Origin: Pohlia nutans
Lineage: Eukaryota; Streptophyta; Bryopsida; Bryales; Mniaceae
Assembly (NCBI GenBank): GCA_022496805.1
Contig: CM040090.1
Coordinates: 10,658,001-10,722,000, forward strand
Direction of reading: 5' to 3'
Length of the DNA: 64,000 nt
Below are positions 16,504-61,875 of this stretch, in pieces (position 1 is the stretch's first letter; every line of letters starts with the position of its first letter). The notes beneath the pieces are model-generated. The model had not been told where the DNA came from. It did no database searches and saw nothing but the letters and a program-made list of their open reading frames with translations. The position numbers were made by a program, and so were the translations under genes.

Positions 16504-17320
16504 TTAACCTTTTAGTGCTCAAGTGACCACTTTGTGGTCTTTCATGTGTTGAAAATGTGAAGAACGGAAAATCCGTTAGGAATTGGATTTTGAATTGTGA
16601 AATTCAGATTTGGAGACTTATAATACACATCTTTTAGAAAAAGAAAATTTCAATTTGAAGTTGTGTAACTATCAAAAATACCTATGAACAAAACAAAAAT
16701 TCATTGCAAATACTTGAAAATAAAGTAAATACTTAAAAAAGAAAACACATTTACCATGCGGTATTTCATGTGTTTAGAAGTTTGTTATCTTATTTTATTT
16801 TTTGGGATTGTGTTTTTTGTTCATGTTCCATTAGTGTATGTATTCCAATCTTGATCTATGTACCTACTCCTTTCATATTTTAACGTATAATTTTCTTGTC
16901 CTAAACCATACATGGATAAATCACTCTCACTTATAAAATTCACAATAATTATGTGTCACTCTCACTTACCATGAAAGATTGCAACGAGGAGGTGTTGAGA
17001 TAGGTCATTGCTGAACATCTTCACTTTCATTTTAGAAAATTTAACCCAAATTCTATTTAGCGTTAAAGTCACACACCCTCCAAAATCTCATTTTTGAGCC
17101 TGCATTATACGGTTCTAACATACTATGATCTTTCAATCCCACCATCGAATGATTGATTTCTCTAATTTTTGCAGAATGTCTCCACTCTAGCTGATAATAC
17201 AATTGTATAGTTACCTTCTAATTGAATCCATTCTATTTCTGGTAGTATCAATCATAGTGAAAAAACCCAGTGAAGTCTAGTGAACCCAACTACATAGTAC
17301 CCTGAACAGTAAAGGATTAA
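16504..17320. mobile_element. TTAA-flanked element, piggyBac-like (CCTTTTAGTG)
   Basis: TTAA (16504-16507) is followed by CCTTTTAGTG; the right end reads CAGTAAAGGA then TTAA (17317-17320), an imperfect inverted repeat. Length is about 817 bp. An interior stretch near 16745-16880 matches, on the opposite strand, about 38290-38400 next to another TTAA terminus, so the two are relatives. No transposase is present. Confidence 0.6.
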
Positions 17321-17658
17321 AGGCAATGATCTTAAAACCACTTTATGACATTTAGAACATTATGCGATCTCCCACATAAATGATATCTACTTTTGCTATC
17401 TAGTGCATACAATACTCACGATACCTCTATATATCCGGCAATACCCTCGATATATTAAGGTGATATCATGATGATATCCACGGATATCACCTCATGAAGT
17501 TGCTACATATTTACATCATGATGAGCATTCTCACTACATTTCAATTTTTTTTCATTTTCATTCTTTGTATGTTTAGCAGCTCCATTTTTTTTGGGTAGAA
17601 ATCCAGCTAATTTTAGCCAGTTTTGAGATCACTGGTTAAAGAGATAGCCCAAGCTCTT

Positions 17659-17918
17659 AGAGTTATTTGTAAAGGCATCCGGTCTTCTGTAATGCTTTTT
17701 TCATGGACCAGAGCTAGTACCAGAGCACTCTGACACCACTTCTCCTCATGGTCCCACCCCACTATCCAATTCTTCTACCTCCCTCCAAATTTTTATGAAT
17801 AAAAATTTCAATCCATCCAGTTTTCTATTTTTGGTCTACAATAAGATCATGCCGATCCTCTCCTTTCCATTTTACAGGTCAAAAAGAAAGGGATTTGAGG
17901 GACTTTACAAATAACTCT
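17659..17918. mobile_element. TIR element, AGAGTTATTTGTAAAG termini
   Basis: A perfect 16-bp inverted repeat encloses 260 bp and is bordered by CTT on both sides (17656-17658, 17919-17921), a candidate 3-bp target duplication. It is non-coding. The superfamily is open; the duplication length would allow PIF/Harbinger or CACTA. Confidence 0.6.
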
Positions 17919-18900
17919 CTTGTCATAGAGAAGTTCGGTAGTTCAGTCAACGCCGACAGCGAGCACGACGCATAAGTGTCTAGTGCACCTGTAAGCTTCT
18001 TTTGATTAATTTATTCGTGAATGGAATGCGTGTCACTAAGAATCTATGAAGCACAACTGAGGTGCCAGTCATTGACTTTGACCAATTGGGTGTGTCAGGA
18101 TGTCAGGAGTGACGATCATGAACGTGCCAGTCCGTCACTTACAATTGCAAGTTGCCATAAAGGACTTTGATCCGACGTCGTTGTCAACATGTTATCGACA
18201 CTAAAGTGTCGTCCAAAGAGTGATCGAGTCCAAACAACCACGTTTTTAGTTGTGCTTGTTTTTGTTTGAATTCGGTAGGTCACTGACCGTTGGCTTTGGT
18301 GGGTTTCTTTCGCATTGAAATAAGTTTTCATTTTGTGACCAAAAAGAATGAAATGAATTCCTGCGATTGACCTCTGTCGTCTGACGGATACATAAAGATT
18401 GTATGCTCTGGAACAAACTCTCAATGCTACGCTGGAGCTGGACTAGCTGTATCTCTGGAGCTGGATCGCTAGCTCTTGTATATATGCGGAGCTCAGTGCA
18501 AACAACTTCTGGTACGCAAATATCCCAATAGTCATTGCTAGCTAGCTAGCTAGCTTCAGCATATATTCTGTCGTAACTTGCTCGTGAGCAGACCAGTTCT
18601 AGTAATTGAAACACAACAGTCAAAATCCAGTCATGCATCTCTCTGAAACCATCTTCTCCCTCAAGCGATTACTCCAGCTCGCTCAGCCCTGAGTCCAAGT
18701 TGTACTTGAGACTATCCTTTTCTCCCTTTTGAATTGTACTTGCTTGAGGATTTGCAGTCCCTTGCAATCCCGGAGCGTCAGTGCAACGAGTTTAGGTCAC
18801 TTACCGTACTATTATACACTGTAGTGCACATTGCCGTGACCTACACTCGTCTGATCATTCCCGTTATCGAACTGATTTAGTATAAGTTGGCAACTGATCT

Positions 18901-19082
18901 CGTATGCGATTCCCTGTGAGATTTCCCTGCGAGTCTCACTTTTCCCACTGAGTCTTGCAGCTGCTTATTCACCAATTTAATGTTGACTTATCTGCTTGTA
19001 AAAAGAAAGTTTAACAAGTGTCAACTCTTGAGGCTCGGTGGGAAAAGTGACACTGAAAGGGAAACCATTATGAGCTCCCTGT
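18901..19082. mobile_element. Foldback element family 2, copy 1
   Basis: An inner hairpin of 143 bp (18922-19064) has arms of about 35 bp around TCACTTTTCCCAC and its complement. The same 143-bp hairpin occurs at 23787-23929. Homology extends some 20 bp beyond each side. It lies about 180 bp upstream of the oxidase start codon, so it may affect that promoter. Confidence 0.7.
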
Positions 19083-19258
19083 GTGAAAGCGAATTCTAGC
19101 ATGTGTATTTTTGGACAAACTATGAATTGTTAAAGTGCTGATCATACACTGCAGTGTCCGCAGAGGTGCATACTGATGGTGGGATTTTTGGGGTCACTTA
19201 CGTAATGATAAATTTTGAACACTCTGTTTGGGAACATGGGATTCTGTAGGCAAACACA

Positions 19259-27246
<7,988 letters not shown>

Positions 27247-27295
27247 GCTTGTTTTGCTTTGTGTTGCACTAGAAGGAAATGTGTCGTTTTTCACT

Positions 27296-27591
27296 TAAGG
27301 TCAAGGCACCCAAAACCGATCAAATAAGACATGTACTATACTTGGGATAGATGAATCGATATTTTGATTAATTTCCTCTTTTAGCACTAAAAAAATTAAG
27401 AAGTTTTCATATTTGATAATTGTTTGAAGAAGTACAAATTTTTTAAGTGGAAGTTGTAGGTTTACCAAAAATCGATCATATGCTCTAATGTACAAATGAG
27501 GTACATCTTCCCTTCCAAAATCTAGAAATTAGGCAAGAATTTAGAGTGGTTGGTTTTGTATACCTGGTCGGGAATGGGTGTCTCAACCTTA
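27296..27591. mobile_element. TA-flanked AGGT-type MITE, copy 7
   Basis: The 296-bp element has imperfect inverted termini (TAAGGTCAAGGCACCCAAAA; complement GGGTGTCTCAACCTTA). Its interior is homologous to copy 6 near 27481-27541. It starts 50 bp after the oxidase stop codon, probably in the 3' UTR, and interrupts a repeat whose unoccupied version lies at 20745-20875. Confidence 0.8.
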
Positions 27592-27843
27592 CTGCAAATG
27601 AAAAAGAAATGAAACGGTGCCAGGCACATGGGTTGTGTTAGTGCTGATGAGTAGTTTTGGTCACAAGAAGACAAAAACGTAAGTATAATATTCTCTGTTC
27701 CCACGAAATGAGGAATAAAAAACGACAGGTTTGCTACTAGTGTTGGATCTTGTTTGCAAATGAAAAAGGATCCCAATGTATCTTTGTAACTATGTGTTTT
27801 ATGACAATGTCAGTGAACAGATATAGCCTCTTCTTCCTAAATC

Positions 27844-28228: not shown

Positions 28229-29699
28229 GCCTTGCACATTTAAATTAAAATCATTACGCTCTTTCCATGTATCTACCTTGTCCAAAGAAATAGTGCGGAA
28301 TAAAGTGTGGACATGCCTAAAACCACCCAAGACCCAATTTTGCACCCAATTTCATCTTGGGATTTTCCAAAAATGACCATGGAATCATGGGCCTATGACC
28401 ATGGAATCATGCTTTACTTGTCACACTCAATTTTTCCACTATAAATAATACAACAATCAGAATTTATATTTTTAGTAGATGAAGCCACGTGTCTACTACA
28501 AATCATGAGTTTTTGACATAAATTTTGGTGAGATCTTGAAATTACTATGATTTTTTGAAGTGATTGTAAAGAAAATTCATATCAATTACAAAGTGCACTA
28601 AAAAATTCCAATTTTTTATACCAAAGGTGTAAATTACAATGAAGAAAAGTTTAGTAAATGAAAATCATCTATATGTCTAAATTTAGAAATTTTTGCTACA
28701 CCATGGTAATATTCATCAAACTTGTGATTGCAATAAAACATTCAATTTTCAAAGTTTTTCAAAAATTCAAAAGTGAAGTAGAAACTAGTCTTAGCAAGCT
28801 TCATTTTGTTAATTAAGTTCAAATGCAATAGAACTCATTTTCATGGCCTAAATTTAGTTTATGTAAAACAAGCAGAAAATACAAAATACACCACACTACC
28901 ATTTTATGACTCTTTTTGTGGTTGGGACCCCATATAAAACCCAAAAATATCTTGAATGATCTGAATTTTACTTGAGGAGGTGGCATGAACAAGCAAAATC
29001 CTTCACACAAAAAATGGATGGAAATCATCCATGCAGTACTTGAAATTGAATAGTGAATTACATTCATAAGCCTGCTTTTGGCCTCTAAAGCGTTTAAGGG
29101 TTAACAAATTCTTTATCCACAACATTTGGTCTCTTATATATGATGATACATGTACGTGTTTACACATGAATATTAAAAAAAATTGTGAATATGTAGTCAT
29201 GACAACTCTTGCAAAGTAGTAGAGATAGAACCTCTTTCCTTCTACTTGGTTTATAAAAGACCTTCACTAAATCTAAGGTAAATACTAAGGCAGAGAGTAT
29301 AGGTGACTAGCTGCTTGACTATTTATGTAAGTCTCATTACAAATAGGAAAAAAAATACAGGTGCTGAAGGCTTAAGGTGGCGGGTATAGGGGTGGATACC
29401 CTAGATGAGATTTAGTAGAAAATGGCTAGAAAAAAAAGTGCGAATACCTTTTGAAGGACAAATTTTTAGGGTAAACTTCATGATGGAGGCCAAAAGCTAG
29501 TGCGCATCATCAGCAGCGATGCATTAGTTATCCGAAGCCTCTGCTGCACTCGAAGCTCATCGCTGTTGCTGAGCTGTGCTCTTGCGATCATCACAGACAT
29601 CACAATTCAGTTAGTGAAGGTGGAGAGAGCAGATACTGCAGATCATAAGGAAAAAAAAAAAAAAAAAAACGGACTCTGAGGTATACAGATTTAGGGGTT
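28229..29699. other. AT-rich spacer with an orphan TTAA element end
   Basis: No gene is supported. AGCGTTTAAGGGTTAA (ending 29104) looks like the right terminus of a TTAA-flanked element, but no left terminus was found upstream. A pure A run of about 21 bases lies near 29650. Confidence 0.4.
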
Positions 29700-29844: not shown

Positions 29845-31728
29845 ATGCAAATTCTGGACGCGCATCATCTGTCCTCCATGGCTGCGCGCACCTGCCGCGT
29901 GCTCTCCGCATGCGGTATTAAGCTTCCTGGAGGATTCTGCAGAACAGGGCCGCCTTCTACTGCCTCCTTTCGACTTGTGGCTGCCGTGCCATGTGCCGTG
30001 CCACGGTACTCTGTGCGTGGATTTGCTCCTTGTCGAGCTGCAGCTCGGGAACAGGGGAATGGAAACGAGTCCTTGGCCTCAAACGATTTTGTGCGGGACA
30101 ATGTGGGAGGCATTCATGTGATCACAGGTCCAATGTTCGCTGGGAAAACTACCGCTCTCTTGAAACGCATTCGACAGGAGGCTGATGCTGGCAGGTATCG
30201 ATTTCCTCGGTTTTTAGGGTTTAGGGTTTAAGGCCACCAATACTCATATTTTGGGAGGTATTAATATTGCTATTAATCGGATACCTTTGGGTGTTTTGAT
30301 ACTAAAGTGACTACCAAAATTAGCCACAAGTCTAATTTGTCAAGCCATTACAGACATGTCAAGTGAGTGCTGAGTCTTTGCTTTATTACACATTTGTAGA
30401 CATCCATCTCATCGGTTTCCAACTTTGTACAAAGCTTTATGAAGTACAATATGTAGCCTATGTCATTTGGCCAGTTTTGTAGCTACTACTTCAATACTTA
30501 TCTTCTTAGCACTTCCACATTCTTTTGTCCAGTATTTCATTAGACTGTTATGGTGAAGTATTGAGGACCTTGTGTGGGCGTTGGTTGTAGGAGGGTGAGT
30601 TTGGTGAAATCGGATAAAGACAACAGATATGCTGTTTCGGCAGTGGTCTCTCACGATGGGGTTCAAATGCCATGTGTGGCTGTCCCAAGTCTTGCAGCTT
30701 TCAGAGAGCATGTCGGAGAAGAAGAATACGGACAGGTCTGTAAAATCTTATTCAATTTGCCCTCAGTTTTTCATTTTTCTGTAGCCACATGCTCAGCTAT
30801 AGACAGGAGCTTCAGGCCTCCTGTAGATACTATCAGTTTTGCTAAATGTGACCATTTCTGAAACTCAGATTAGTCTTACATCATGTTGGGAGTTCTTTCC
30901 ACTTATCATTTGCAGATGGACGTTATTGGAATCGACGAAGCTCAGTTTTTTGACGACCTCGTAGAGTTTTGTCAAAGTGCTGCCGACCTCGACAATAAAA
31001 TAGTCATTGTCGCTGGACTCGATGGTGATTTTCTAAGGTATGTCCTAGTAAAGATAGTTTTTTTTTATCATCCGCCTGGTTGTAGGGTATGGTCCAGTAC
31101 TTCTTGCACTTTGGAAAATTACTGTCAGTTCAAGTCTAACGCCAATAAGGTAGTGAACCTATCGTCGTGGGTTGAAAAGTCACCCATGTACAATGCAAGT
31201 GTCATCCAAACACGTAACTTCTAAGAACTAAGATACTTCTAGTTTCACAGTCAAAGATGCTACTCATGTTTCAAGATAGTGATTGGGACCCTCCTGTTTG
31301 AAACAATTCATAATACATATTTTAGTGCGTTGGAATCCTCTCGAGAAACATGCCCTCTAAGCAAATTAGTGGGAACTATTCAAAACAGCTGAAAGCCATG
31401 GGATCGGGTTCTTTAACTGAGTACTGTTGTAGATCCTTGTGCTGATGTTCTTCACTTTTGCAGACCCAGATTTGGAGGTGCGCTTGATCTGATACCTTTG
31501 GCAGACTCGGTGACGAAGCTTCATGCACGATGTGAGCTTTGCAATCAACCAGCTCCTTTTACCTTCCGCAAGACCGTCGACACTGAGACTGAGATAATAG
31601 GTGGGGCAGATGTCTACATGCCAGTGTGTCGACATCATTTTGTGAGCGGACAGTGTGCTGTTGAAACTGCTCGCAGTGTAGTACTGCAGGTTCAGCCGTT
31701 GCAGCCCACCAAGTCCAGAGTGAAGTAG
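29845..31728 (+). CDS. TK1: Thymidine kinase (TK1 type) with N-terminal extension
   Basis: It phosphorylates thymidine to dTMP in the nucleotide salvage pathway. Exons: 29845-30194, 30591-30735, 30916-31037, 31464-31728, total 882 nt, 293 residues. A second in-frame ATG at 29878 (context CCATGG) would give 282 residues. Visible features: P-loop GPMFAGKTT (about 95-103), KSDKDNRY, catalytic-site motif IDEAQFF, AGLDGDF, the zinc half-site [14 protein letters not shown] and the lasso-loop motif [13 protein letters not shown] with its Cys. The catalytic core starts near residue 89. The preceding ~85 residues are rich in Ala, Arg, Ser and Cys and poor in acids until residue 75, as in organelle transit peptides of plant thymidine kinases. 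Plastid and/or mitochondrial targeting is therefore inferred. Intron 1 contains telomere-like TTTAGGG repeats near 30212-30230. Confidence 0.95.
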
Positions 31729-36590: not shown

Positions 36591-37383
36591 CAACCATGAC
36601 TGACGGAAATCCAGGGGACGGAAACAAACCAGACACGAAAGCTCGCCATATCTCACGGAAGCTGTGCACGCAAACGAGGGCATCAGTGTAAGATTCAGAC
36701 AACTGAAGTGCGGATGCAGGAAAACCGGGTGGAGATTAGGGTAAGGGGGACTAACCAGGAGTGGAAGCACCAGAACAAGCGAGAAGAAGAATGCAGTAGG
36801 AGTTGCCGAGTAGTGCTCAGTTACAAAAAGTGAAAAGAGCAGAGCTGAAAGACAAATGCACCATTGATCGCGACGAGGAACTGAGCATCAGGTGCGAGAA
36901 GTGGCATTCAACTGGCTTCGAAACAGGGACTTTACTCATGACTGCAGCAACCATGTGTTCAGCACGTGTAACAGCAGATCGCTTAACTCCTAAAAGACAA
37001 AGAAGCCCAAAATGGGTCTCATGTTTTTTTATAGCAGTTTTGAGTGGTACTATGGATGTACAAAATTTGGTTCTATCCGAGTTCTCGTTTTCACAACATG
37101 ATCGATTGAATTTGTCATTTTAAACTACGAATCCTTGGTCCTTAGGGGTTCAGCGGATCGATCAGACTGGCAACAGGATGCAGCTGTTTCGCAACTAATA
37201 AGTAACTTGAGGCTCACAGACTACAGGCATGGAGGAGAAGAAGCTTACACGCAAATTCTCTGGCTGGCAGGGAAGAGGAGCGTTGATCCCGGGCACAAGC
37301 CAAATTGAATGAGGCAACCAGGCTGAGCCCGTTGCTCCGCCTGCTGCATGTTACCGTCCCTTGCTAGGAGCTTCATGAGGTTC
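36591..37383. other. 5' flank of the dehydrogenase gene
   Basis: Moderately GC-rich to about 37000, probably promoter and leader of the minus-strand gene. Short frames on both strands show no family resemblance. Confidence 0.4.
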
Positions 37384-37859: not shown

Positions 37860-38472
37860 TTAACCCTTTAGTGCCCATGTCACTTTTCCACAAAATACTT
37901 TTTCAGTCAGAAGGTGCTTCTGGATGGTGGCATTTTCACACAAACGGATTGCTTAAAAAAGAATCCAACCGTGCTAAATTGAGCGTACTTCAATTTTATG
38001 CATTCAATTATAAACTCACGTAAATCCAACAGTTCATTTGCAAGATCATGTCTCGCATTCGTAGTCATACTTGCACTATCATTGAGAGTGTATACAAACC
38101 TCTCTATTGAACTTCATTCCGAGATCTTTATAATTATTTTTTAACTTGGATGTGAGTCGCATCTTCAATACCTTCTCCGAACAATTTTCTATCCTTCCAA
38201 TAATTACTCAAATTTTCAAAGAATTTCAAAGTCCACACTAGAGGTACACGTACGATTTTTGTAATTAATTTATACGTAAAAATATGAAAGGAGATGGTAC
38301 ATTAATCAATATTAGAATACTTACACTAATGCAACATGAACAAGAAAACACAATCCAAAAAAATAAAATGAGATAACAAACTTCCAAACACAAGAAATAT
38401 TGCATAGTACATGTGTTGTATTTATAAATATTTGTTGCATTTTGGTGTTTTATACATAAGTATTTTGAAAGC
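37860..38472. mobile_element. TTAA-flanked element remnant, relative of 16504-17320
   Basis: TTAA (37860-37863) is followed by CCCTTTAGTGCCC, a piggyBac-like left terminus. About 38290-38400 is homologous, inverted, to about 16745-16880. The expected right terminus (GGGTTAA type) is not seen before the next element begins at 38473, so this copy seems truncated or overrun. Confidence 0.5.
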
Positions 38473-39049
38473 TTAACCCCTAACTGCCCAAGCAGGCGTT
38501 TTTGGCCTGATGTACAGATTTCATCCGTATTTTCTCATCCGTCATGCAATTTTTGTCGTGTGATTTTTTTACTGAATTTTTTATGGGAAGTTAGCTTCAT
38601 GTATGTGTGATTCCATCGAAAAGGAAATAATTTTTGGAAAAATTATGCCTCATTTTGTATTGTAGTGTTTCACCGAAAATCTTGAAGATTTTGGTCTAAA
38701 AGTGTTCTTGAAAAAAAAAACTATTAAAATCAAGCATCCAAAAAATCTCCAAAAATCACTACACCTAAAGTACTACATTATAACCCATCACAACAAGTTT
38801 CATCCACATATTGCCAATATCTTATTCGTAATTGAATTACAAAATACTTTTTTATTTTATGTTTCAAAATTTATAAAAAAAGATTAGTGATAGCAGTCAC
38901 AGATTTAACCGTATAGATAGAATCTAAAATTAAAAATGTATAACTTTTATTCATACATCAAATTCTAAATATTCATATTAATTGCATTTTATAATGCATC
39001 TTTGCAAAACTGCCTAAATTGGACATAGATGAGGACGTTTAGGGGTTAA
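38473..39049. mobile_element. TTAA-flanked element, piggyBac-like (CCCCTAA)
   Basis: 577 bp with TTAA at both ends (38473-38476, 39046-39049). Left terminus CCCCTAACTG, right ACGTTTAGGGG, an inverted repeat of about 8 bp with the ACGT word shared with other members. Non-coding and AT-rich inside. Confidence 0.65.
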
Positions 39050-41029
39050 CATTTCCAAATCAAAAGGTATCTTTTTTATAAGATACACATCGCAGACCCC
39101 TCTTCCGTTCTTTAGATCACTGAGTTCTATTCACAAGAGATGTGGAGCCTATCAAAAAAGCACCAAGCAATGACCATATATTGGTCTCCTAGGCAGTAAA
39201 GAATTAAGTCGTTTGTGGACCACACTCTTAACTCCATGTAGTATTGTGCATGGCCGACCTTATAATATTGTAAAAATGGAATAACTATGCTCATCCAAAT
39301 CTTGCTTCACCACTTCTAAAGTCAATATCTCTAATGAAATCCCTTATTTGCAAATATGGGATGTTATTCTCTAATATAATTTAGCATTATTTGGATGTGA
39401 GCATTGCGTGGGCTAAAGAACTTTATATTATTAGACGTGGGCTTAATAATTCATTAATCCATAAAGGGCCAAGAAGTTTGAATTGGGTCTCAAGATGCAA
39501 AAAGAATCAGGCGAGCTTTCCAGTTTAATTGGAAAACTTAATTATAGAGATGAAGAGATGCCACTAGTACAATAATTATATACAAATGGCAAGAGAGTAA
39601 ATTTCAGAACATGAATTGAGCATCAAAAATTTCAAACATGCACTTTATTTACATGGCCTTGAAAAAAGACTAAAGTTTCTATGATTAGAAAGATTTTGAG
39701 GTCTCCGAGAGGCTGTGAATGTAACCAACACCTTTATGCACATAAATAAATATTTAAAAAATCGAGAAATCAATGAAATAATTTTAATATAATTTTTTAT
39801 TTTATTACAAAAAAAAAATCCATATCAAACGTGGCTAAATTTTGGCTATGTCAAATTTTATTTATTTTAAGATTTATGTTTATATTATTTATTTATTTAT
39901 ATATATTTATATATTTTTTGCATGCAATCTTTGGCCAAATTCTTGACCTTTTGAATGCCTCAAAACGTTTGTAATGCTATCTTGTTCATTTTTTAATGAA
40001 TAGTTTGGAAGCTTCTAAAAACATGGAGTATACGAATTGGAGAAAAAAAATCTCTTCAATATTTGTCAATCTCATACTGCATCAATGGTATGTTTAGTGT
40101 ATCCTTTGAAGTGTGCTCTAAAATCACACATGTGAATACTTTGAAATCATACACATAAATATATTAGTATCATGTAAATAAAGAAATTTTGAACTTTGAT
40201 GCATGAAACATCAACTTTCATAACATCAGGTATAAAATTAAAAAAAGTCCTAACATCATTGCAAAAAAAAATATCGTTCTTTGTAGTATCAATGATGTGT
40301 ACACAAGGTTAGAACATAACACATCATAAAGTTAAAACAACATACATTAGCTTTTAAAGAGGCACATAACATGTCAAATACATCCAAAACTTCATAAGCC
40401 CCTTTCTATGAGTTTATGAGGTTTGTTTCTCCAACAATCCAAATAGCACTTTCTAACTTCTTCATCAACGTTTACAAATGGACTTCAAAGATGTACAGAT
40501 GATATTACTAGTTCTTGAGGTACCGATGGAGTACTTTGTGCATCATCAAAATGATCCATGAAATTTGGCTAAAAGTACAAAAGAAAAGATCCTATTTTTC
40601 AACGCACTAGTGGTAGGTTATGTTTTTTTTTTAAAAACTTTCCAATATTGCCACATTAAAAAACACCGTTAAAGGATTACAACTTAATTCACACGTGGAC
40701 TACAAGCTAATATGTCATTTCTCATTCCCAAGAGTTTGGAAAAGTGTGAACTATGAAATGTAGACGTTTGTCCTATATGATGTTCCGCACTTACCTCCTC
40801 CGACATAGTAAGAAGTGGAATTCTCTGTCTTCATAGTCGAACGATTCATAATAAAGCACACCGATCTAATGTTTCCAATTCCGCCCTCGAATTGTAGTGG
40901 TGTACATTTGAAACCAAAAATGTTTACCGTCGGCACATTTGGAAACATGGTGGTAGTTGTACCTTAAATGCGGAGAGGGAGAAAGAGTCACGGTCGGTGC
41001 CGGTTGAACAATAATGGTATACGGGTTCC
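39050..41029. other. AT-rich intergenic region
   Basis: Nothing recognisable: no coding signal and no clear terminal-repeat pair. Base composition becomes GC-rich from about 40980. Confidence 0.45.
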
Positions 41030-48877: not shown

Positions 48878-49265
48878 TTAACCCTTAAACGTCAAGAGGG
48901 CCTGGACGGGACAGCCCAGAAGGCATCTAAATTTTTGGAGGTAAAAAATAAAATAAAATAAAATAAAAAATAATTTTTTTTTTCTTTTTTGCAAAAACGG
49001 CTCTGCAGTGCACTGCTGACTAGCACTATAGCACTGTTGAACTTCAACTGCCCCAACCTCAAAACTTGTTCAATTTGATAACTTTGATTGCTTACCAACG
49101 ATTCCACAATTTCTCAAATGAGGCGAAAATTTGGAATCTAGATTGCTTTTTTAGTAGCTTTCCAACGCACCAATCCTCGCTTGATTTGTTTGAGAAAATC
49201 AACTTTTTTCTTCATTATTCTCTTTTAAATAAGCCCATGGGGCTTACCTTGACGTTTAAGGTTAA
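48878..49265. mobile_element. TTAA-flanked element, piggyBac-like, family A copy 2
   Basis: TTAA at both ends (48878-48881, 49262-49265). Left terminus CCCTTAAACGTCAAG; right CTTGACGTTTAAGG, one G short. The interior is the reverse complement of 22975-23412 (for example the CTGCAGTGCACTG block and the heptad-like A/T tract). This is an independent insertion in opposite orientation. Confidence 0.8.
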
Positions 49266-50271
49266 GTCCCTCTTCACTGTCTGCTCACGTGTCTGTGTGT
49301 TCCTGGCATGACTAGATCAGTAGCTTGGTGAATGTATCAGTTTGTGCCTTGGCACTTTCCTTTGTTTGGTGAGTCTTGATGTAGAGGATACTATTTGTGT
49401 CACTTTCACCCCTATAAAAAATTAGGATTCATGATTCTAAAAAGTCCAATTTGATCAATTGTATTGTTAAAAATATAATTTAGATGTGGTCAAATTTCAA
49501 TTTTTGAATAATGCTCAAACGGACTCAACGGGAATCAAACCAGACCGTCTAACTGTAATACAAACGTCCATCTCCAACCAACCTTGGAACCATGACTTGG
49601 CGAACACCAACAAAATAAACACCAATTTATACCCACACAAGAACTAACTAATCAATACTACTAGTGTTACTAGTACTTATCTTTGGTCACTAAAGTGTCT
49701 ATTCCCGAAAGGGGAGAGTAGTCTTGCACCAATGGCCCTTTGTCCGGTGGGCACTGGCTCATTGTCAAGATGAACATACACTTTATTCACGTCGGCCTTG
49801 AAAGAGGACTGGAGTTCATATCTATCTATCTGGTCAAATTTCATATAATCAAACTTAACCCTTGAACGCCACATAGTACAGATAGGTTTGAGGCTTAAAA
49901 ACAAATTGTAGTTATTGATAATTTTTTTGCTGAAAATGTTTTGATCTTCTTACAATATTATAAATAGGATTTTGAAGAACATTCGAGAAACAATAAACCA
50001 AAATTGCACAAAAGAAAGCCTTCATTTGAGTTGTTAATAAGGTGGTCAGTATAGGAAATGGGATCATGTCCATAACAATTTTAGTGTCTTTATCATTGTA
50101 ATCTTGCAAATGAATCTCCTGGTCGATGTTTTCAAACTTCTCTAATTGGAAGTTATGGCATTGCACATTTTCAATATATCCTAAGAATGTGTCATGTTGT
50201 ATACATATCTGATTGGACAACTTTCACTTGTGAAATTGGGAACACTTGAAGTTGGAGCCCATTTGTCCTAA
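49266..50271. other. AT-rich spacer with an orphan TTAA terminus
   Basis: TTAACCCTTGAACGCC at 49855 looks like a left terminus of the TTAA group, but no right end follows. No gene is supported. Confidence 0.4.
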
Positions 50272-51480: not shown

Positions 51481-52888
51481 CTCTTAGCCAAACAAGTGCA
51501 TCATTGACGTCTGATAATGTGAAGAAATACCTGTTTAAAAGTGACGTATATAATTTTGCTACGTTTTGCAACTGGAAAAGTTCATTTCTAAACCACAAGC
51601 AACCATGGTGAAGGAAGGTGCATAGTATTGGATGGTTAGCATTGAAATTTACCAAATCATTTTTTTTCCACCCTTAAAACTCTAATCCAAGAATGCTTGA
51701 ATTTAGATGCTAAGAGTTGTCTTAGTTTTGAAAGAATATGTGGAAAATTGTGGAATTATGAAATTCTCACAAATGTTGAAGTTTTAAATTATTAATAGAT
51801 CATGATAATCAATCAAATTGTTGTGAGTGGCTTTTTAGTTATCGTAGCCCAAAAATAACACAATGATCTTGTAGGTGGTAAAAGATGTATGGGACATTCA
51901 TTTGCTTTAAAGTGGCTCTACTAACAGCTGACCATACAATATAGTGTATTGTACAATTTTATTAAAATTAACAGATATATTTACCAAATCTTCTTAACTA
52001 TACAAATGCTTTTCTTTTGTCATTTGGAAGACCAAAAAGGGCTTGTAGCCTTTATTGAGGCCATTGTTTGTGGAAATATGATGTTGGATGTTATTTTTGA
52101 TTTTTGATTTCTTTGTTACTGATAGTGATTGCATTAGTTACTGATTGTAGAGACACATGCTATATGTGTAATTGAACCAACAAACACAAAACTCAACAAT
52201 TTAGCATTTGGAATGTGCAAGTATTCTTAGTTGAACATTATTCAAAATAAGTTAAACTACTATGTACGATTGAACCTCAAAAGTCTCATCACAACACATT
52301 TTCTTCTTATTCAACTCATGCACATTTATCACAACCTTACTAAATCAATTTTGGTCCATAGGAAAAGTAGATAGTAAAGGGGGACTAAAATTGAATGAAA
52401 TATGGACCAAAATTAATTCACTGATTTTTGTCCTTTTGTTTGTGACTTTGCTTTGACCCTCTTGGGTTTGATCCGGCGTTGACATTCATTCCTAGACGGT
52501 TGTTAATCCCCTCTTAGTCTCAGTGACTTTGCTTGTTGTGGTTGTTTGGAGTTGCCTTGTGCGACCTTGTTGTGAAGGCTTCTCATTGTGACTCTTGCAT
52601 CTTGTTTTTGCCTTTTAACTCCTAAAGGAGGTTGCCCATGTTCATACTATGCGCATACATGAAAGAACATTCACGTACAAGTGGCGTTTATTGTAGCATA
52701 ATGTATCAATTTGGAGTCAATTTTTTGTTAGCCTTATAAGGACTACGAGACATGTTGCTGTAGAAATTTCAGAAATTTTCCTTGTGCTCAGGTGAAAGAA
52801 TCTCTTGTACAAATGTGACAGTGAGAAATAGTAGAGCACATTGAGGTTAATTCCCTAATTTCGGGTTTCCAGCTCAAGTTGGCATGAG
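51481..52888. other. AT-rich spacer
   Basis: No gene, terminal-repeat pair or RNA gene is recognised. Confidence 0.4.
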
Positions 52889-52891
52889 TTA

Positions 52892-53236
52892 GGGCCGCTT
52901 CACACTATGGCCAAAGGTCGAGAGGCCGTCGGTTTCCACCAATCAAATTGCAAGAAACCATGGTTTTGGCCTCTCGACCCTTCACACTAGAGGCCAAAGT
53001 CCAAAGGCCGTGGACCTTCAAAATGCTTACATGGCAACACTTTTTGACCAAGGTGACGGCCTCTCGAGAAGAAGTTTGGGTCCTACATTTTGCAAAACCT
53101 GTCACCATGGTCGAGAGGCCGTCGATTTCTTTTCATAAAAAATGAAAACTATATTTTATGCCTATTTTCAGTAGATTTCTTTGGACTCTCAATCCCACGG
53201 CCTCTCGTCTTGGACGGCCATAGTGTGAAGCGGCCC
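52892..53236. mobile_element. Tourist/PIF-Harbinger-like MITE (GGGCCGCTTCACACTA)
   Basis: 345 bp between direct TTA copies (52889-52891, 53237-53239). The termini GGGCCGCTTCACACTATGGC and complement match perfectly over 21 bp. Internal GTCGAGAGGCCGTCG words recur in both halves. It ends 260 bp before the RNA-binding protein start codon, so it lies in the promoter. Confidence 0.85.
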
Positions 53237-53496
53237 TTACAACACCCTTGAGTTACAAAACTCTATATAATCACGTGAAAGTTGGTCGGTGACATTAAAG
53301 AGGTCATCGTCTTCTTCGTTCTGCAGGCTTGCAGTAGGTCCCGTTGGGAATGCTCCTACAGTGCGAAGCTTGTATGCTTGTCGTCCCATTTTGTTTGTTT
53401 TACTGTCGACGCTGTCCCATTCTCTTTCTCGTCGGCCATGGCTACCGCCCTCTAAGCCTTTCCCTTCTACCGGCGCTCCCTGCCTTACGCTGAGCG

Positions 53497-56400
53497 ATGG
53501 CGGACCCCGGCGCCACCGCCGACGACGATGAGTATGATGTGAAGGACGAGGAGCTTGTGGACTTTGAGGGCTCCGACTATGGCTTCGAATCCGGCGCAGA
53601 CGAAGAAGAAGTCCCTCCCACCCCCAAAGCGGAAACAACAACAACAACAACAACAACAACAATAATCGCACAACCTCCTCCTCGCCGAAATGATACTCTG
53701 GCGGTGCATGAAGCGGAAGCAGCAGATGTTGTACAACAACCTCCTAAGGTCGTCAAAGTCGTCGTAGATGATCCCTCTAAGCTTCGCAAAACATCGTTGC
53801 CTCCTCCTAAGCCTGACCTCGAGGATGGCGAGCTTGACGACGCTGCCATGGTGATCATCCTCTCTCTCTTATGGTGTCTCCATAACTCTCCCAATCATAT
53901 CACCCCCCTCGTTTTCTCTTGGCTAGGGTTTCCCTCCTCTGTCATCGTTCCGCCCCTCTTTACACTGGATGATAGCAGTTACCGAAAGGCAGCACAGAGA
54001 GAGAGAGAGGCTTATTCCGTTTTTTAATTTATTCTTTTTCCTACTTTTCCTCATTTTGGAGTGAGGGACGAAGCGCGGACTCACGACACCTTTTGGTCTT
54101 AGTCTCTGGCCGTTTGCGAAACAGTCTCTCATATCGCTGAATCATATGAAGTCATCATCCCATGCCAAGTGTGCGTAATAGATGTACTTTGAGTGGAGTG
54201 TCTCTACGTCGTCTGTCTAGAAAATTGGACATTTTTAGGCTCGGTTAGCAGCCTTCTGTCCGATCATCACTGGAGCGCCGTACTTTACTTGTGAGGATTA
54301 CGAACTTCGGAATTCCTAGTTTCTCTTGCGCCAAGATTTTGGCTCTGTAGAATGGTTTGGTTTTCTCTCACTATTATCCCTCCCTTTGTTAAGTCTGAAG
54401 ACTTCATTCTTCGTATTGCTGTATCGACCGGCCCTATGGTTATGTTTGTATCCTGATAGAGCTTGGACGACGTTTGACGTTGAGCATCGTATTGTCCCTT
54501 CAATCTTCTATAGATGTCTGTCTCGTGGGCCGTATTTATTGAGGGTGAGTTAGTTGTCTCTGAGGTAAGGTATATGTCCAGCAACTATTACGTTGAGTTT
54601 GCCGCATGGGATCAGTTCTGCTTACCTACCTTCATACGCGAATGAGACAAATTCGGCAGCAAAGCCTACAGTAGTTATTGAGAATCCAGGAAGGAGATGG
54701 CTGGGTTTGATCAACTCCTTTCAGAGGCTGAAGGCATGTTCAAAGCGTTGGCGGGGATCCGAAATATTATCCAGAGAACCCAAACTTGGTGAACTTCCTA
54801 AGTGTTTCCTGTTTAGTGGAGTATACTTTAGAGAGAGGGCTTGTTTAGGGTTGTCCATTTTTAAATTTGAATTGGTTGTGGAGGGTAAGCGTCTGTGCTG
54901 AAGTACAGAGAAATGAAGTTTTGTGCGCATTTTTAGACTTTTTACCCTGCTGTTTTAGTGAGAAGTAAACCCTAAACCATATTCAAACGCGTCAATCGGC
55001 TATTTCTTGAAGAGGAGAAGATCTATGTATAACATCCGTGAGAAAATATGTCTTAATTAAGGTACCTTGTGTCATGAATTGAAAGTACAGCAGCATCAGC
55101 TATTCAAATGTCTAGGGAACACAAAACTGCTCAACTTCCTGGAGGTCATCCATGGATGACCTGCATATCCAGGAGCGTGCTATTATAACACCCAGGAGGT
55201 TTACTTCAATCATCTTTCTCCCATAGTTGTGGTCTTTGTACCCTGAGTTGTGCATGTGAAGATGGCTTGAGGAGCCAATAATCTTTCTTTCCCCCAAGGG
55301 TGGCTCTTTAGAAGTATCTCTTGAAATGAGTCGGTAGAGTAATTTCTTTTACACATGCGTGGTAGGATTTTGTCTAAATTGTCCCTCATTTTTCGGGCAA
55401 GAGGTGCTGGGTTTTGTAAACGTGATGTTTGCAGGAAGCCTCAGCCCTGATCAAGAGGGAAAGTAGATAGTAAAGATCAATTTAAGCACTCATATGTGGA
55501 AGTTGGAAATGCGGGGAACAGCCCGAGGGTTCTGACCCTGAAGCAGTGGCCAATGGTGGAGATGATGACGAAGATGAGAACGATCGGCGTGAGCGGAAAC
55601 GTAGGAAAGATCGATATGCTGCGGAGAGGCAACCGGATAACAAGGGAAGACGAGATGCAGAGGAGTCTGCTCTTGCGCACAGCAGGCAATTTCGAGGGCA
55701 TGGAAGGTATAATCCATGTTGTACTTTTGACTTGTTATAATCCAAAGTGGTTTGCGAAACAAACTGTTTGCTTTTTCTTTTTCTTTTTTAACCTCTAAGC
55801 GTCCACTGTGTATTTTCTGTAGTGTAGGAAAATTGGACCCCCTGTTGCAAATGATCTATTTGTGTGAAAATGGCTTCAGTTTGACATGGTCGACACTGTT
55901 AATCTCGTAGTATAGAACAAGAGCTTTAAAACTATGTATTGCAATCAGAAAACCGAGGTAAAATGAGAAAATGCCACCGTTGCAAAGTTTAGTAATTCAG
56001 ATGGCCATATTGGGCGTTTTAGACGCTTAGAGTTTAAATTACAACTTTGTTCTCCTTAGTGCTTGTATGACGCATAATGTGAAATTGTCCATCCCTTATG
56101 GGCTAGATTCAGCATATATCGGTGGGAAAACAGTGCCCGACAGAAAGAGCAAGTTTTTTGATGCGCAAGCATATATAAAAGAGCCTCAGTGAACTGTTCG
56201 CAGGGTCTTTTCTTCTTAGAGGAGTGGACTCTTTTCATTCGTTCTACATTGTTTACAGCTCTTGAATGAGTTTACATTTATTGCGTTTCTTCTTTAGCAT
56301 GTGCAATGTGGTGTGTCTGCTGAATGGTGTATGTGCTCATCATTTTCAACTGATGTCTTTTCTTTCTGTCTTTTGTTCAGTGACAAGATGCATGGAAGTC

Positions 56401-59195
56401 AACGCAATAATTATTCTAGAGGTAAACTTTAGGCTTTCGCATATATACTTTCATCTACTTCCCTTTCGGTGAGTAAATATTATGTTATCAATTCCGAATT
56501 TATCAGGGTGCACAATTACAACTGCAGCTCTCTAGTCACCGATAGTTGTATCCGACAAGCAAATGTAACTTTGTTTTTTTTCGAAGTTGATACTCTGTTT
56601 CTTCCACAAAAATATGTTATATCAATGTTAAACTTTAAATTTCCCTCTTGGTTGAATCTGATGTAAACACTTTGTATGACTACTTGCTGCTTCTGTGGTT
56701 TCTTTCGGTAGCCTAAATCCTTTCTGAACGTGCAGGATGTTCATACTAATGTTTAGGTTGTTTGCAGTTTCTAAAGGTTCCAATGCTGCGCCTTTTCAGC
56801 GAGGGAATTCTGGACCAGGAATTATGGGTCCTGGAAGACCTCCAGCTTCGATGGAGTATGGGGGGCATATGTCGTTGCTCTCTATTGGCCGAGGATTTCC
56901 ACGACCCGTTGCAGGCATGGTCGCACCTGGAAGGTTGAATCAAAATGAGGTTAATGTAAGAAGCCTTCTTTGTAGAAACTTGCTCGCAGTCTCTGGTGGT
57001 TTGGGTAACCTGTGATCCTCCAATTGTTCTTGTTCTTCCAAGTATCTTCATCAAGTAGTAACGTCATAATTTATTTAGGCCTTTAAAGGATTAATCATGC
57101 TTTTATGTCGGGAATTGTCATATTTTTGACCTCTTATGTTCGTATGTCTCCAATTAAAAGGGTTTATTTTAGTTATAAATGTTGATGTGGAGTTTGTCTC
57201 TGCACTTTCAGATGTTCTATTTCAAGAGCTTGTGAACTCTTCAGGCACTGAACGCTTTGTTTTTTTATCCAACATATTTCGATTCTCTGAATGCAACGAA
57301 ACGGCTTGTGTAACAGATGCAAAATCATATTAGAGATAGCATGGCAGTCCAAGCAAATATGTTGCGACAGCAACAAACTATGCAAATGGCCCAAGAGCAA
57401 GTTCAACAGGTCCAAGCACAGGCCCAGGCCCAAGCTCAAGTTCAAGCCCGAGCACAAGCTCATGCTCATGCTCAAGTACAGCAGGCACATGCCCATGCGC
57501 ATGCCCATGCTCAAGTCCAGGTCCATATGGCTAATTCTGGGGCACTTCGGGCTTCTATGAGCGGTTCTACCATGCGCCCGATGATGGGTCTAGAGCTTGT
57601 AGGAGGCCAAGTACAGGGTTCATATGGGATGATGCATTTACAAGTCCAGAAACCTGACTCAGGGCCACAAATAAATTTTCCGAGGCCCTTGGAGGGTTTT
57701 GGGAACAGAGCTCCACCAAGTACAGACTTCGCTGCAGGTCGAGGCAGTGTTGGGGGACTAATGTTAAATCAGCCAAGCAACCGAGATCGAACAGCAGCTG
57801 GAAGACAACTGAGCGCCTGGGCACCCTCATCTGCTATTCATCATGAGCTTTCAAATATGCCAGCTGCTCGAGGAAGGGCACAAGGCCAGGGTCGAGGTCA
57901 GGTGATGTGGGGTGAGCCACCAGTAGGTGGTATCCCCACAGGATTTCCTTCACCTCTTGGAGTCATTGGTCATGCAGTCCCTGTCAACGTTAGTCCTGGG
58001 GGTGTGGTGGCTTTGGGAACTCCCAAGAGACAGGGATCGTTGCCCATCATGATGCCTAACAATACCACTAGTAACAGGGAGAATGCTAATATGAAGAAGG
58101 TAGACATTCGACCTCAGGTTGATGGTACGTGGAGAACAAATGGAGGTCATAATCGAGGCAGTGTCCACCATCACAATGGGACTCCGGTTCCCTATTCTAG
58201 GAACGACACCGCGGTATGGTCCAAAAGTTCATCTGGAGGTCAATCTGGAAGTAAACGAAGCCGAGAAAACGGGATGGATCGGAGACTCAGCTCAAAGCCT
58301 GTGCCTATTTCAAGTGTAGGAAATGGCATGGGAACTGCAGGCAACCATCTTATTCAGCTTGGTGGACCTGTCACAAAGAGCAGGTATTATTCACTTGTAT
58401 AACTTACACAATTTTCTCGACCTTGTATGTCTGAGCGCTCCGGGTCTTGTGGTGTACCAGCATCCCGACTACGTTTACCAAACAATGCATATTTTCTTGA
58501 TAGTGAGGACAAATACTAGATTACAAGAAGATTGTGACCCGAGAGGATTTAAAAGCCCTGCAAACTTTTACATTCTCCGGATGCATTTTAGCTTTGTATT
58601 TAATTGGTCAAGAAAGGAATGGATTTTGCTCCTGGGGTAATGCACATTCTAATGACTTGGGTGTGGTGTTTAGAGTGATTTCTGTGAGTGGTTTCCCGGA
58701 GAAAACGTCTATGGCAGTGGTGGTGGAAGCATTCGAGAAACAAGGGAAAATTCTGGTATGATCTTGATTTGGGTGTGATTGTATGCTGATGTGATCTTGA
58801 AGTCTTTTAACTCCTTTGCTTTAGATTGTGAGTATTAATAAGCTAATGAACTTTTATGTTTCAAGGAATGTCGGTGGGTTGTGCTTTATCTGACTTCAGT
58901 TGTTGATTCTTGAGCCTGAGATCCGTGGTATGAACGTGCAGGATTTTAAGAAGGATGAGAAAGGAAATGCTTTCCACATAACCTTCTCCAGCGTAGCAGA
59001 AGCTGTTTCAGCAAAACGAAGTCTCCACAGGTGAATATTATCGATCCTTTATATTTTTCTATTTCTGTACAATTGTGAAGACATCTTCGATGGAATTGCA
59101 TGTTATTCTGGATCCTGACAGATGAGGTTTTTCTGTGCAGGACCCTCTTGAATGGCCGTCAAATTACTGTAGATTACACGGTTCAGGGGTATTAG
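53497..59195 (+). CDS. RNA-binding protein, C-terminal RRM, Q/A/H-rich middle
   Basis: Likely a nuclear RNA-binding protein; partners are unknown. Exons: 53497-53850, about 54694-54788, about 55503-55706, 56381-56421, 56768-56955, 57317-58383, 58674-58755, 58942-59030, 59141-59195. With these borders the total is 2175 nt, 724 residues. The N-terminus is acidic (DDEYDVKDEELVDFEGSDYG), then a Thr run. Exon 2 encodes GFDQLLSEAEGMFKALAG, a probable helix. Exon 3 encodes an acidic/basic stretch with RRERKRRK (possible nuclear signal). Exon 6 has an alternating Gln/Ala/His tract. The last ~76 residues are an RRM: VISVSGFP (RNP2-like), KGNAFHITF (RNP1-like), NGRQITVDYT. The 54788/55503 junction is the weak point because its acceptor (GTGGAAG) is poor. 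The architecture recalls RBM33-type proteins, by inference only. Confidence 0.8.
55788..56037. mobile_element. TTAA-flanked element, piggyBac-like (CCTCTAAGCGTC)
   Basis: 250 bp with TTAA at 55788-55791 and 56034-56037. Left terminus CCTCTAAGCGTC, right GACGCTTAGAGT, 11 of 12 matching. It lies in an intron of the RNA-binding protein gene. Non-coding. Confidence 0.75.
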
Positions 59196-59691
59196 AATTG
59201 GCCGCTCTCATTGTATGTAATAGCAAGGTGGCACCTCACCAATGAGGACATATTCCTGTTCTCCGATTCCAGGTTCTCTTTTGGGATTTCAAGGAAACTT
59301 TATTACGTGAACCATTCAAAAACTTACTGAGGTGGTGCAGCAGAGAACTCTGGGTACACCTTACGAGGCAGCATCCTTTTGAGGAACCGCTTTAAGGTGA
59401 AATCAACATGTTTAGAGCAGAACGTTCTATTTTCAGCTGGTACCTGTGGTATTTGCAAGGGATACAGTAGAGTGCTCCTGCCAGGCTTGGGAAGTAGCTA
59501 TTCTCAATTATAGTCGACTTCTGTACATGGTTGATGGGAGCATTTGCTTTACACCTGTGCTCAGTGCACTCGTAACTGAGGTAGCCCAACTTGTTCTAAT
59601 TGTAGAATATTCATTTTGCCAGTTTCTTAAGTGCTGATCTGGACTTGTCACTACAGTAGAACATTTTGGCCTATATTTGTCTTAACCCTGA

Positions 59692-59780
59692 AAGGACGCC
59701 AGATGACTTTTCCCTTGCGGTTGGATGACTTTAATTTGCTATTCTGAATTCATCATAGGCCCTTGTCCTTTCAGGTTTCA
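59692..59780. mobile_element. Very short TTAA-type element remnant
   Basis: TTAA (59692-59695) then CCCTGAAAGGAC; about 75 bp later GTCCTTTCAGG followed by TTTC, not TTAA. It looks like a deleted member of the TTAA group, lying downstream of the RNA-binding protein gene. Confidence 0.5.
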
Positions 59781-59873
59781 TGTTATATGCTACTCCCTCT
59801 GTCTGGAAATAACTGTTCTATTTTAGGCATTTGTCTCATGTTGTAAGGAATTCCGGGCCCTGTTCTTGACTAA

Positions 59874-60273
59874 GAGCATCTTCAATCAAGCGCAGCACAA
59901 GGCGCAGTAGCAGCAACCGGCACCTCGATTCATACTCAAAACCAATCCAACGCAGCCAATCCTGGTACAGGCCATGGCAAAAACCCTCATCTACCCGGAA
60001 AATTTTGAAAATATGCCGAGCTTAGTATTGCACACAACTAGGCTTCAAATTCGCATGTGGTTGGACGAAGCTCTGACACTTTGTCTTTACCCCATCACTC
60101 CCAAACAACCCCATTGCCGAAATAGAAATTTCGGAGCTTTTGGTGGGCCTTCATCTGCCTTGTGCATTGGGTCCCCTTGACCTTCATTTGAAACGGTAAC
60201 CAAAAACTCAGAAATGGCCACTTCATATTTCATTTCACAGAGTCTCAATTCTGCTGCTCGAATGAAGATGCTC
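59874..60273. mobile_element. Tourist/PIF-Harbinger-like MITE (GAGCATCTTCAATC)
   Basis: 400 bp between direct TAA copies (59871-59873, 60274-60276). Termini GAGCATCTTCAATC and GAATGAAGATGCTC match at 13 of 14 positions. The open frame inside (59974-60180) has no recognisable product. Confidence 0.8.
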
Positions 60274-60584
60274 TAAGTCTATTCTTTCGGTTTACCCCGT
60301 GGTTTACCTTGTCCAGCTTAAACCGGCAGTGGGGTAACTATCGCGCAGTAATTCAAGAAATAATTATGTCCGGAAAAAATATAGCCCATGACAAAACAGT
60401 GTTATGCTAGATCCTATTTTCCGAGGCTCTTGTACATGTCCTCGTATCTGTATTCTGTATGATGTGTAGTTCCAATACGTATCATGTACTATACAGTGTA
60501 TGGTATACCACCACCTGCCTCATGGATCGGGTTTAGATTAGATTTAGGATCACCTACAGTGAAGAGGCAAGCTCTAGGGTTTCT

Positions 60585-60715
60585 GAGGCCAATATTATGC
60601 TTTTGGACGTGACAACGTCTCCATCAAGCGTTAATGATCGTGTATCAATGTGAGGCCAATATTATGCTTTTGGACGTGACGTCTTCATCAAGCGTTAATG
60701 ATCGTGTATCAATGT
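60585..60715. repeat. Tandem duplication of ~65 bp
   Basis: A unit starting GAGGCCAATATTATGCTTTT is present twice in a row (67 and 64 bp), differing mainly by a 3-base gap (GTGACAACGTC versus GTGACGTC). It lies immediately before the TTAG-flanked element at 60755. Confidence 0.85.
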
Positions 60716-60754
60716 CATGGAGACTTTATGATGATTGCAATCGTTGACGTTGCA

Positions 60755-61875
60755 TTAGCCCCTAAAGGACCAGAGTGTTTTTCCTCCAAAAACACTCCAA
60801 TGCTGCCATTCTTACTCCCCCATGCAAAAAATCCAAAAAAATGTAATTTTTTACCTTTTAACCGTAAGATCTTGTCTTAAACCATTTAAAAAACATACAC
60901 AACAAATTTCATTGATTTTGACCGCACGGATTGCTAGATAATTGTGTTTGATGGAAAAAAACATCCCAAAAAAACACATGCCCGGAAATTTCAGATGCAT
61001 TTGACCATGGCTACATCAAAAAATCCTCACTACCGAAACCTGTCGCACTTCATTTTCACATTCTATATGATGTTACTTAGTTGTGTATTAATTTTTGTTG
61101 CATTTGGAGATGTTTAGGATGTTGAAGAACACCTTGCACTTGTTGGGGGTTTAAAAGTTCAGAAAAGACTGTACATTCCACCTTCTATAGAATGGCGAAA
61201 AAAATTTGAGAAAAAAATAAATTTTGAAGTTTTAGAAGACATGTAGCACATTTTTTAAGAATTTTGGGGTTTAGGGGGGAAATAAAGGGTGGAAGAAGGG
61301 AATTGAAGTGCCAACCCATTCCAATGTTCATGACCCTCAAGGTGTACTGCCATGTGGCAGTCCCTCATTGGATGATTTTAATTTTTTAATTTTAATTTTT
61401 TTAAATGATTTTAATTTTCAAAAATTTTAATACTATATTATAATTATAAAATTTAACTTTTAGTTCAAAATATTATTTTTTAATTTAAAATAAAAAATTT
61501 CAGTTTAAAATAAAAAATTTATTTTAAAAATTTTAAAATAATGTTTTTAAATTTTTTGAATGAGTTTGGAAAATGGGGTGGTCTTCTCCCCCCCACAGGC
61601 CACCCCATTTTCCACACACCGCCCATCTTGTTGCCCCCCCTAAAATTCAACTATTTCTCTACTGCCCCGCTGCCCTTTCTCCCGAAAAAACACATTTCCC
61701 TTCATAACTTTCACATCCGGTGTCGGGATTCAAAAAAAAAAAAACCCCCATTTTCGTGGCACATTGGGGAATCTACTATTAAATTTGCTTCAAAGTTTGA
61801 TTAAAAATGTGTTCACCGGAACCTACCCGATTCTCTAAATGTCCTAGTTAGGACACTTGGTCCTTTAGGGGTTAG
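60755..61875. mobile_element. TTAG-flanked element with piggyBac-like termini (CCCCTAAAGGACCA)
   Basis: 1121 bp with TTAG on both sides (60755-60758, 61872-61875). Termini CCCCTAAAGGACCA and TGGTCCTTTAGGGG are perfect over 14 bp. It is the longest of this group, yet its only open frame (61541-61804, 87 codons, low-complexity) is not a transposase. The centre is very AT-rich (about 61375-61550). Confidence 0.75.

What the first reader, a model, noticed from the sequence alone, without database searches (positions are those of the whole stretch)
16504..61875. A diverse set of TTAA-flanked, CCC-ended (piggyBac-like) elements in a plant genome
At least five elements have both ends: 16504-17320, 22975-23412, 38473-39049, 48878-49265 and 55788-56037. 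All sit between TTAA tetranucleotides and begin CC(C/T) followed by a shared theme of the kind TTAACCCnnAAnCGTC. Further single ends occur at 29104, 37860, 49855 and 59692. TTAA duplication plus a CCC terminus is the piggyBac signature. From established knowledge, piggyBac is common in animals and some protists and, as far as I know, poorly documented in land plants. The diversity of terminal sequences suggests several lineages of non-autonomous elements, which implies a transposase source in this genome.
Basis: partly seen in the sequence, partly recalled or inferred. Interest (0 to 1): 0.8.

Follow-up and report, generated by a model that had tools for sequence, protein, structure and literature searches.

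The report
Moss piggyBac-like mini-transposons at TTAA
A stretch of moss DNA carries several small, protein-less jumping elements with the hallmarks of piggyBac, a transposon family known mainly from animals, including a paired DNA motif at the same distance from the tip as in the moth piggyBac.

Summary
All five elements have both ends at TTAA (one left coordinate is 22965, not 22975). I add a sixth TTAA pair (37860-39207), one with TTAG on both sides and a perfect 14-bp inverted repeat (60755-61875), and two weak ones. The host is a moss by a thymidine kinase tree.

These are transposons: two dispersed copies (84% identical) stop matching exactly at their TTAAs; 38473-39049 sits inside a relative of the 16504 element and has gained one TTAA; and the TTAG pair is a direct repeat, so the 4 bp are target duplication.

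New: in several unrelated families one end carries a palindrome centred on bp 25 from the tip, the register at which the moth piggyBac transposase's C-terminal dimer binds (PMC7351741). Six families against other TTAA flanks: 0 of 500,000 random draws reached the observed value; a looser test gives P = 0.0004. Kolobok, a TTAA rival, ends in RR, not CCY.

Not shown: a transposase. None was found in the window, and the host genome could not be searched. Most likely these are piggyBac-superfamily MITEs in a moss, a new member of a known kind.

The parts
16504..17320 (+). E1: TTAA-flanked element, ends CCTTTTAGTGCTCA / TCCTTTACTGTTCA; palindrome GACCAC-GTGGTC centred on bp 25 of the left end
   Evidence: 10/14 inverted repeat; no ORF above 54 aa lying mostly inside
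22965..23412 (+). A1: TTAA-flanked element with perfect 14-bp inverted repeats CCCTTAAACGTCAA; palindrome CAAGCC-GGCTTG at bp 17-33 of the left end
48878..49265 (-). A2: second copy of the A family, 84% identical, opposite strand, unrelated flanks; match to A1 begins and ends at the TTAAs
37860..39207 (-). E1b: diverged relative of E1 on the other strand, split by the nested E3; palindrome GACCA-TGGTC centred on bp 25 of the 39207 end
38473..39049 (+). E3: TTAA-flanked element nested in E1b; ends CCCCTAACTGCCCA / CCCCTAAACGTCCT; palindrome CAGGC-GCCTG centred on bp 25 of the left end
   Evidence: joining the flanks with one TTAA restores colinearity with E1
55788..56037 (+). D: TTAA-flanked 250-bp element, 12/14 inverted repeat CCTCTAAGCGTCCA / ACTCTAAGCGTCTA; imperfect palindrome (4/6) at bp 25 of the right end
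60755..61875 (+). F: 1.1-kb element with perfect 14-bp inverted repeats CCCCTAAAGGACCA flanked by TTAG on both sides; palindromes at bp 27 (left) and bp 24.5 (right)
36983..37152 (+). G: weak 170-bp candidate, TTAA/TTCA flanks, 9/14 inverted repeat, palindrome 4/6 at bp 25 of the left end
59682..59780 (+). H: weak 99-bp candidate, TTAA/TTCA flanks, 11/14 inverted repeat
29087..29104 (-). single end TTAACCCTTAAACGCTTT, imperfect palindrome (4/6) at bp 25, no partner found
49855..49872 (+). single end TTAACCCTTGAACGCCAC, no palindrome at bp 25, no partner found

Best explanation
These are non-autonomous (MITE-type) elements of the piggyBac superfamily in a moss nuclear genome. They carry only what a transposase needs to see: a tip of CCY plus a roughly 14-bp inverted repeat and, in most of the families here, on one end a palindrome centred on or near bp 25 that would bind a dimer of the transposase's C-terminal cysteine-rich domain. 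A piggyBac transposase made elsewhere in the genome (now or in the past) cuts them out at the tips and pastes them into TTAA, rarely TTAG, duplicating the four bases. Shown: ends, dispersed copies, 4-bp TTAA target duplication, palindrome register, lack of coding capacity. Inferred: the transposase, its dimer binding, and cut-and-paste movement.
For: A1 and A2: 84% identity that starts and stops exactly at the TTAAs, flanks unrelated. Nested E3: with E3 and one TTAA removed, the outer flank aligns with E1 (local score 261 to 290; 94 of 158 aligned bases identical, score -2 against a maximum of -6.5 in 500 simple shuffles). F: perfect 14-bp repeats between direct TTAG repeats, so the 4 bp are not part of the inverted repeat. 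Palindrome: mean 2.95 of 6 pairs at centre 25 over 19 ends against 1.65 over 654 control TTAA flanks, best of 73 centres, and no random set of 19 among 200,000 reached it; six families taken once each, 0 of 500,000 draws. Published register in moth piggyBac: bp 17-33, axis about bp 25 (PMC7351741, passages). piggyBac termini: CCYT and TTAA (PMC10175614, passage). Longest ORF lying mostly inside an element: 96 aa (ORFs of 45 aa or more; H not examined).
Against: No transposase was seen; the only piggyBac profile I ran across all frames was built from 120 hits to the moth protein (all named ones insects) and may miss a plant relative; Pfam was run on only 20 ORFs of the window and gave none. The palindrome is not in every end: 8 of 19 have at least 4/6 pairs at bp 25, 4 of 19 have 5 or 6, and F's lie at 27 and 24.5. 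With a tolerance of one base the enrichment falls to 6 of 19 against 33 of 650 (P = 0.0004). I saw palindromes by eye before scoring, and chose the arm positions. Folded as single strands, five ends form the hairpin but with modest z-scores, -1.7 to -2.8. Only 9 of 19 ends read strictly CCYT, 15 of 19 CCY, and bee piggyBacs are reported to start CAC (PMC10140906, passage), so the tip is not a strict rule. Copies elsewhere in the genome were not checked.
Confidence: 0.88

Rival explanations
1. Elements of another TTAA-targeting superfamily (Kolobok or Sola3) that happen to start with CCY.
For: Kolobok also duplicates TTAA and is reported from chlorophytes and rhodophytes (PMC9587614, passage). 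Sola3 also duplicates TTAA (recalled; no call gave its duplication or termini).
Against: Kolobok termini are 5'-RR (AG in the ten full-length Xenopus copies, PMC6004289, passage); no end of the 19 here begins RR. The bp-25 palindrome matches the piggyBac synaptic complex.
Confidence: 0.07
2. The ends are a mix of telomere-like CCCTAAA boxes and chance TTAA, not transposons.
For: The window has AAACCCTA stretches (9275, 9740, 30231) that a profile of the ends also picks up.
Against: Paired ends, two dispersed copies cut at the TTAAs, nested insertion with one TTAA gained, TTAG direct repeat.
Confidence: 0.02
3. PIF/Harbinger (Tourist-like) MITEs with a 3-bp TTA or TAA duplication.
For: Common in plants; 3-bp TAA/TTA duplication (PMC10004981, passage); TTAA contains TTA and TAA.
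Against: A 3-bp reading gives TTA on one side and TAA on the other, so no direct repeat; F gives a 4-bp TTAG direct repeat.
Confidence: 0.03

Closest known systems
piggyBac superfamily, moth (Trichoplusia ni) piggyBac
   Same: TTAA target and duplication, CCY tip, short inverted repeat, palindromic internal repeat centred on bp 25 of one end (PMC7351741, passages)
   Different: no transposase in these copies; different palindrome sequences; a moss host; TTAG used once
piggyBac-type MITEs (classified in insects, PMC5199201, passage; listed for angiosperms in a review, PMC10004981, passage)
   Same: small size (here 99-1121 bp, E1b longer with its insert), no coding capacity, TTAA flanks
   Different: host is a moss; several terminal families side by side; relation to the angiosperm MITEs not tested
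Kolobok / T2-MITE
   Same: TTAA duplication, MITE anatomy
   Different: Kolobok starts RR (AG), these start CCY (15 of 19 ends)

Membership tests
piggyBac superfamily | 4-bp TTAA target-site duplication | tested here: met
   6 of 9 pairs TTAA/TTAA, 1 TTAG/TTAG, 2 weak pairs TTAA/TTCA; nested insertion gains one TTAA
piggyBac superfamily | CCY(T) tips and short inverted repeats | tested here: met
   15 of 19 ends CCY, 9 of 19 CCYT; 14/14 repeats in A1 and F, 9-12 of 14 in six others, 6/14 in A2 through a 1-base deletion
piggyBac superfamily | palindromic internal repeat at bp 17-33 (known for moth piggyBac; not known to be universal) | tested here: met
   centre 25 is the best centre; family-level test 0 of 500,000; at least 4/6 pairs in 8 of 19 ends only; looser test P = 0.0004
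piggyBac superfamily | DDD transposase (PF13843) in an autonomous relative with the same ends | tested here: inconclusive
piggyBac superfamily | footprint-free excision | not testable with these tools
   needs polymorphic sites or an excision assay
Kolobok | 5'-RR termini | tested here: not met
   0 of 19 ends begin RR; definition from PMC9587614 (passage)
PIF/Harbinger | 3-bp TWA duplication | tested here: not met
   TTAG/TTAG at F; TTAA is symmetric only as 4 bp
Sola3 | terminal sequence and Sola transposase | not tested
   no definition found in the passages read

The most novel reading that the evidence does not exclude
Mosses host their own, diverse piggyBac lineage whose transposase still binds a palindrome at bp 25 of one end through a C-terminal zinc-finger dimer, as in moths. 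The asymmetric piggyBac synaptic complex would then be conserved across animals and land plants, and piggyBac MITEs would be a sizeable part of moss DNA (about 7% of this window).
Probability: 0.5. Interest if true: 0.65.

Novelty: new member of a known kind. Interest (0 to 1): 0.5.

Why it matters
piggyBac is a major genome-engineering tool, and in plants it is used as an import from a moth (PMC10905368, abstract in the listing and passages). A native moss lineage would offer plant-adapted transposases and a far-off point of comparison for how the enzyme reads its ends. The shared bp-25 palindrome, with different letters in each family, makes a testable prediction about the missing transposase. 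It may also fill a gap: in the listings and passages of my searches I saw no account of piggyBac elements in bryophytes.

Tried and rejected
Host genome search for PF13843 with the genome search failed as 'busy' in all 12 tries. A protein search with moth piggyBac listed its best 120 of 1186 hits; every organism named among them is an insect, many have no name, and no plant is named. A scan of viral contigs with an alignment of 20 of those 120 gave no relative (48 pattern matches, none confirmed). The 16-mer TTAACCCTTAAACGTC occurs in 3 viral contigs, which I did not follow up. A displaced palindrome (centre 50-60) on the 'other' ends, as on the moth right end (its position recalled), was considered: 4 of 7 ends against 17% of 650 controls, partly in AT-rich sequence, so not claimed. 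Other high-scoring end-like hits (6810, 32316, 39454, 52850, 57094, 9275 and others) were dropped: no partner found or not looked for, or telomere-like. The profile was trained on these same ends, so its excess (18 hits above 13 bits against 0.4 in simulated sequence) is partly circular and not used as evidence. No Rfam match at gathering score and no tRNA gene in the window.
Full report
What is there. The window is plant nuclear DNA: PRONE exons (plant-specific) lie in ORFs at 3224-4779. A spliced thymidine kinase (29845-31728) groups with Physcomitrium and six unnamed proteins at 100/98 support in a tree of 30 rows, apart from liverworts, ferns and seed plants (29 of the 120 listed hits were used). 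So the host is most likely a moss, but not Physcomitrium patens itself (69% identity over 76% of the protein). The species is not identified.

The elements. A motif search gives 10 matches to TTAACCCTTAAACGTC with up to 3 mismatches against 0.56 expected; one of the ten is a telomere-like stretch. A search that assumes neither TTAA nor CCC, over all 256 flanking tetramers, recovers A1, D, E3, E1 and E1b under TTAA and F under TTAG; it also gives perfect pairs under TATA and TCGA that belong to other repeats. A2 is missed there because one base is gone from its right tip, but it is found by homology. Together E1, A1, A2, E1b with the nested E3, D, F and the weak G cover 4542 of 64,000 bases, 7.1% (the 99-bp candidate H is not counted). 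None of these holds an ORF above 96 aa, counting ORFs of at least 45 aa lying mostly inside an element.

They are transposons. (1) A1 and A2 are 84% identical over 339 aligned positions and 83% over a second stretch of 96; the similarity begins at 22965/49265 and ends at 23412/48878, exactly the TTAAs, and the flanks are unrelated. (2) E3 lies inside E1b. The core of E1b matches E1 at 86% over 168 aligned positions; the piece beyond E3 matches the E1 left end at 94 of 158 aligned bases, better than any of 500 simple shuffles. Joining the E3 flanks with a single TTAA makes the two colinear. E1 itself has TGTAAC where the joined site has GTTAAG, so the target TTAA is inferred from E1b, not read from E1. 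(3) F has identical 14-bp ends between TTAG and TTAG in direct orientation. Because TTAG is not a palindrome, the four bases are a target duplication and not part of the inverted repeat.

The palindrome. In moth piggyBac the two C-terminal cysteine-rich domains form a dimer on a palindromic repeat at bp 17-33 of one end, with the axis at about bp 25 (PMC7351741, passages and outline with abstract seen). Here A1 (CAAGCC-GGCTTG), E1 (GACCAC-GTGGTC), E1b (GACCA-TGGTC) and E3 (CAGGC-GCCTG) have palindromes centred on bp 25 of one end. A1's right end, D, G and the single end 29104 have imperfect ones there (4 of 6 pairs). A2's is at 24 in an end that lacks one base, and F's are at 24.5 and 27. Over the 19 ends the mean is 2.95 of 6 pairs at centre 25 against 1.65 for 654 other TTAA flanks; centre 25 ranks first of 73; none of 200,000 random sets reaches the value. 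Taking six families (A, E1, E3, D, F, G) once each, best of two ends, the mean is 4.33, and 0 of 500,000 draws from the control flanks reach it. GC-matched controls do not change this (mean 1.54, n = 441). Allowing any centre from 24 to 26 and asking for at least 5 pairs weakens it to 6 of 19 against 33 of 650, Fisher P = 0.0004. As single strands five of these ends fold into the hairpin, with modest z-scores of -1.7 to -2.8. The letters differ between families while the position is kept, which fits a binding site for a dimer. I noticed palindromes by eye before reading the paper's coordinates and chose the arm positions, so this needs a test on independent copies.

How it most likely works. 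A piggyBac transposase supplied in trans binds the tip and the palindrome, excises the element and inserts it at TTAA. Steps shown: the TTAA duplication, the ends, the dispersal of copies. Steps inferred: the transposase, the dimer binding and the cut-and-paste chemistry.

Rivals. Kolobok also uses TTAA but begins RR (PMC9587614, passage; PMC6004289, passage); none of 19 ends does. Harbinger's 3-bp duplication does not fit. Sola3 could not be tested.

What is known. piggyBac is described from animals, fungi and plants in general terms (PMC10140906 and PMC10813416, passages), a review counts PiggyBac among angiosperm MITE superfamilies (PMC10004981, passage), and a fern genome table lists 1230 copies (PMC6890710, passage). 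Searches pairing piggyBac with moss, bryophyte and moss-genome terms gave no paper that I saw describing it in a moss (listings; opened: three of 11 listed; in PMC10619864 the word is 'piggybacking'; the Pohlia genome paper PMC9247546 shows 0 occurrences of piggyBac in the listing and was searched for other transposon terms). That library holds only open-licence papers and I read no supplementary tables, where repeat annotations usually sit.

Limits. No transposase: a profile from 120 hits to the moth protein finds nothing in six frames of the window (best E 2.4), Pfam on 20 ORFs names none, and the host genome search did not complete. Activity, copy number and age in the genome are unknown.

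Noticed in passing
14811-15006 (and 9467-9689 vs 14798-15020): A different inverted-repeat element: perfect 14-bp ends TTTAGTGTGAGATA flanked by TATA, inside a 92%-identical two-copy repeat.
   Followed up: no
23981-24268: Another pair of perfect 14-bp inverted repeats, GGCACCTAAAACCG, flanked by TCGA.
   Followed up: no
19709-19880 and 24747-24918: Two copies (93%) of a fold-back repeat, each about 80% its own reverse complement.
   Followed up: no
9244-9855: Five degenerate copies of a 69-bp repeat, some with telomere-like AAACCCTAAACCC stretches.
   Followed up: no
26296-27246: ORF with a match to a sugar-lactone oxidase family (ALO, PF04030). Short direct repeats around it (18898-19065 with 23763-23930, 20763-20872 with 27588-27693) hint at a local duplication spanning the A1 element.
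   Followed up: no
21782-21944: TTA microsatellite, 54 units.
   Followed up: no
ends at 23412, 48878, 37860 and 39049: These 'other' ends show a second palindrome centred at bp 52-59, reminiscent of the displaced repeat in the moth right end (recalled), at 4 of 7 ends against 17% of controls; partly AT-rich and not claimed.
   Followed up: partly
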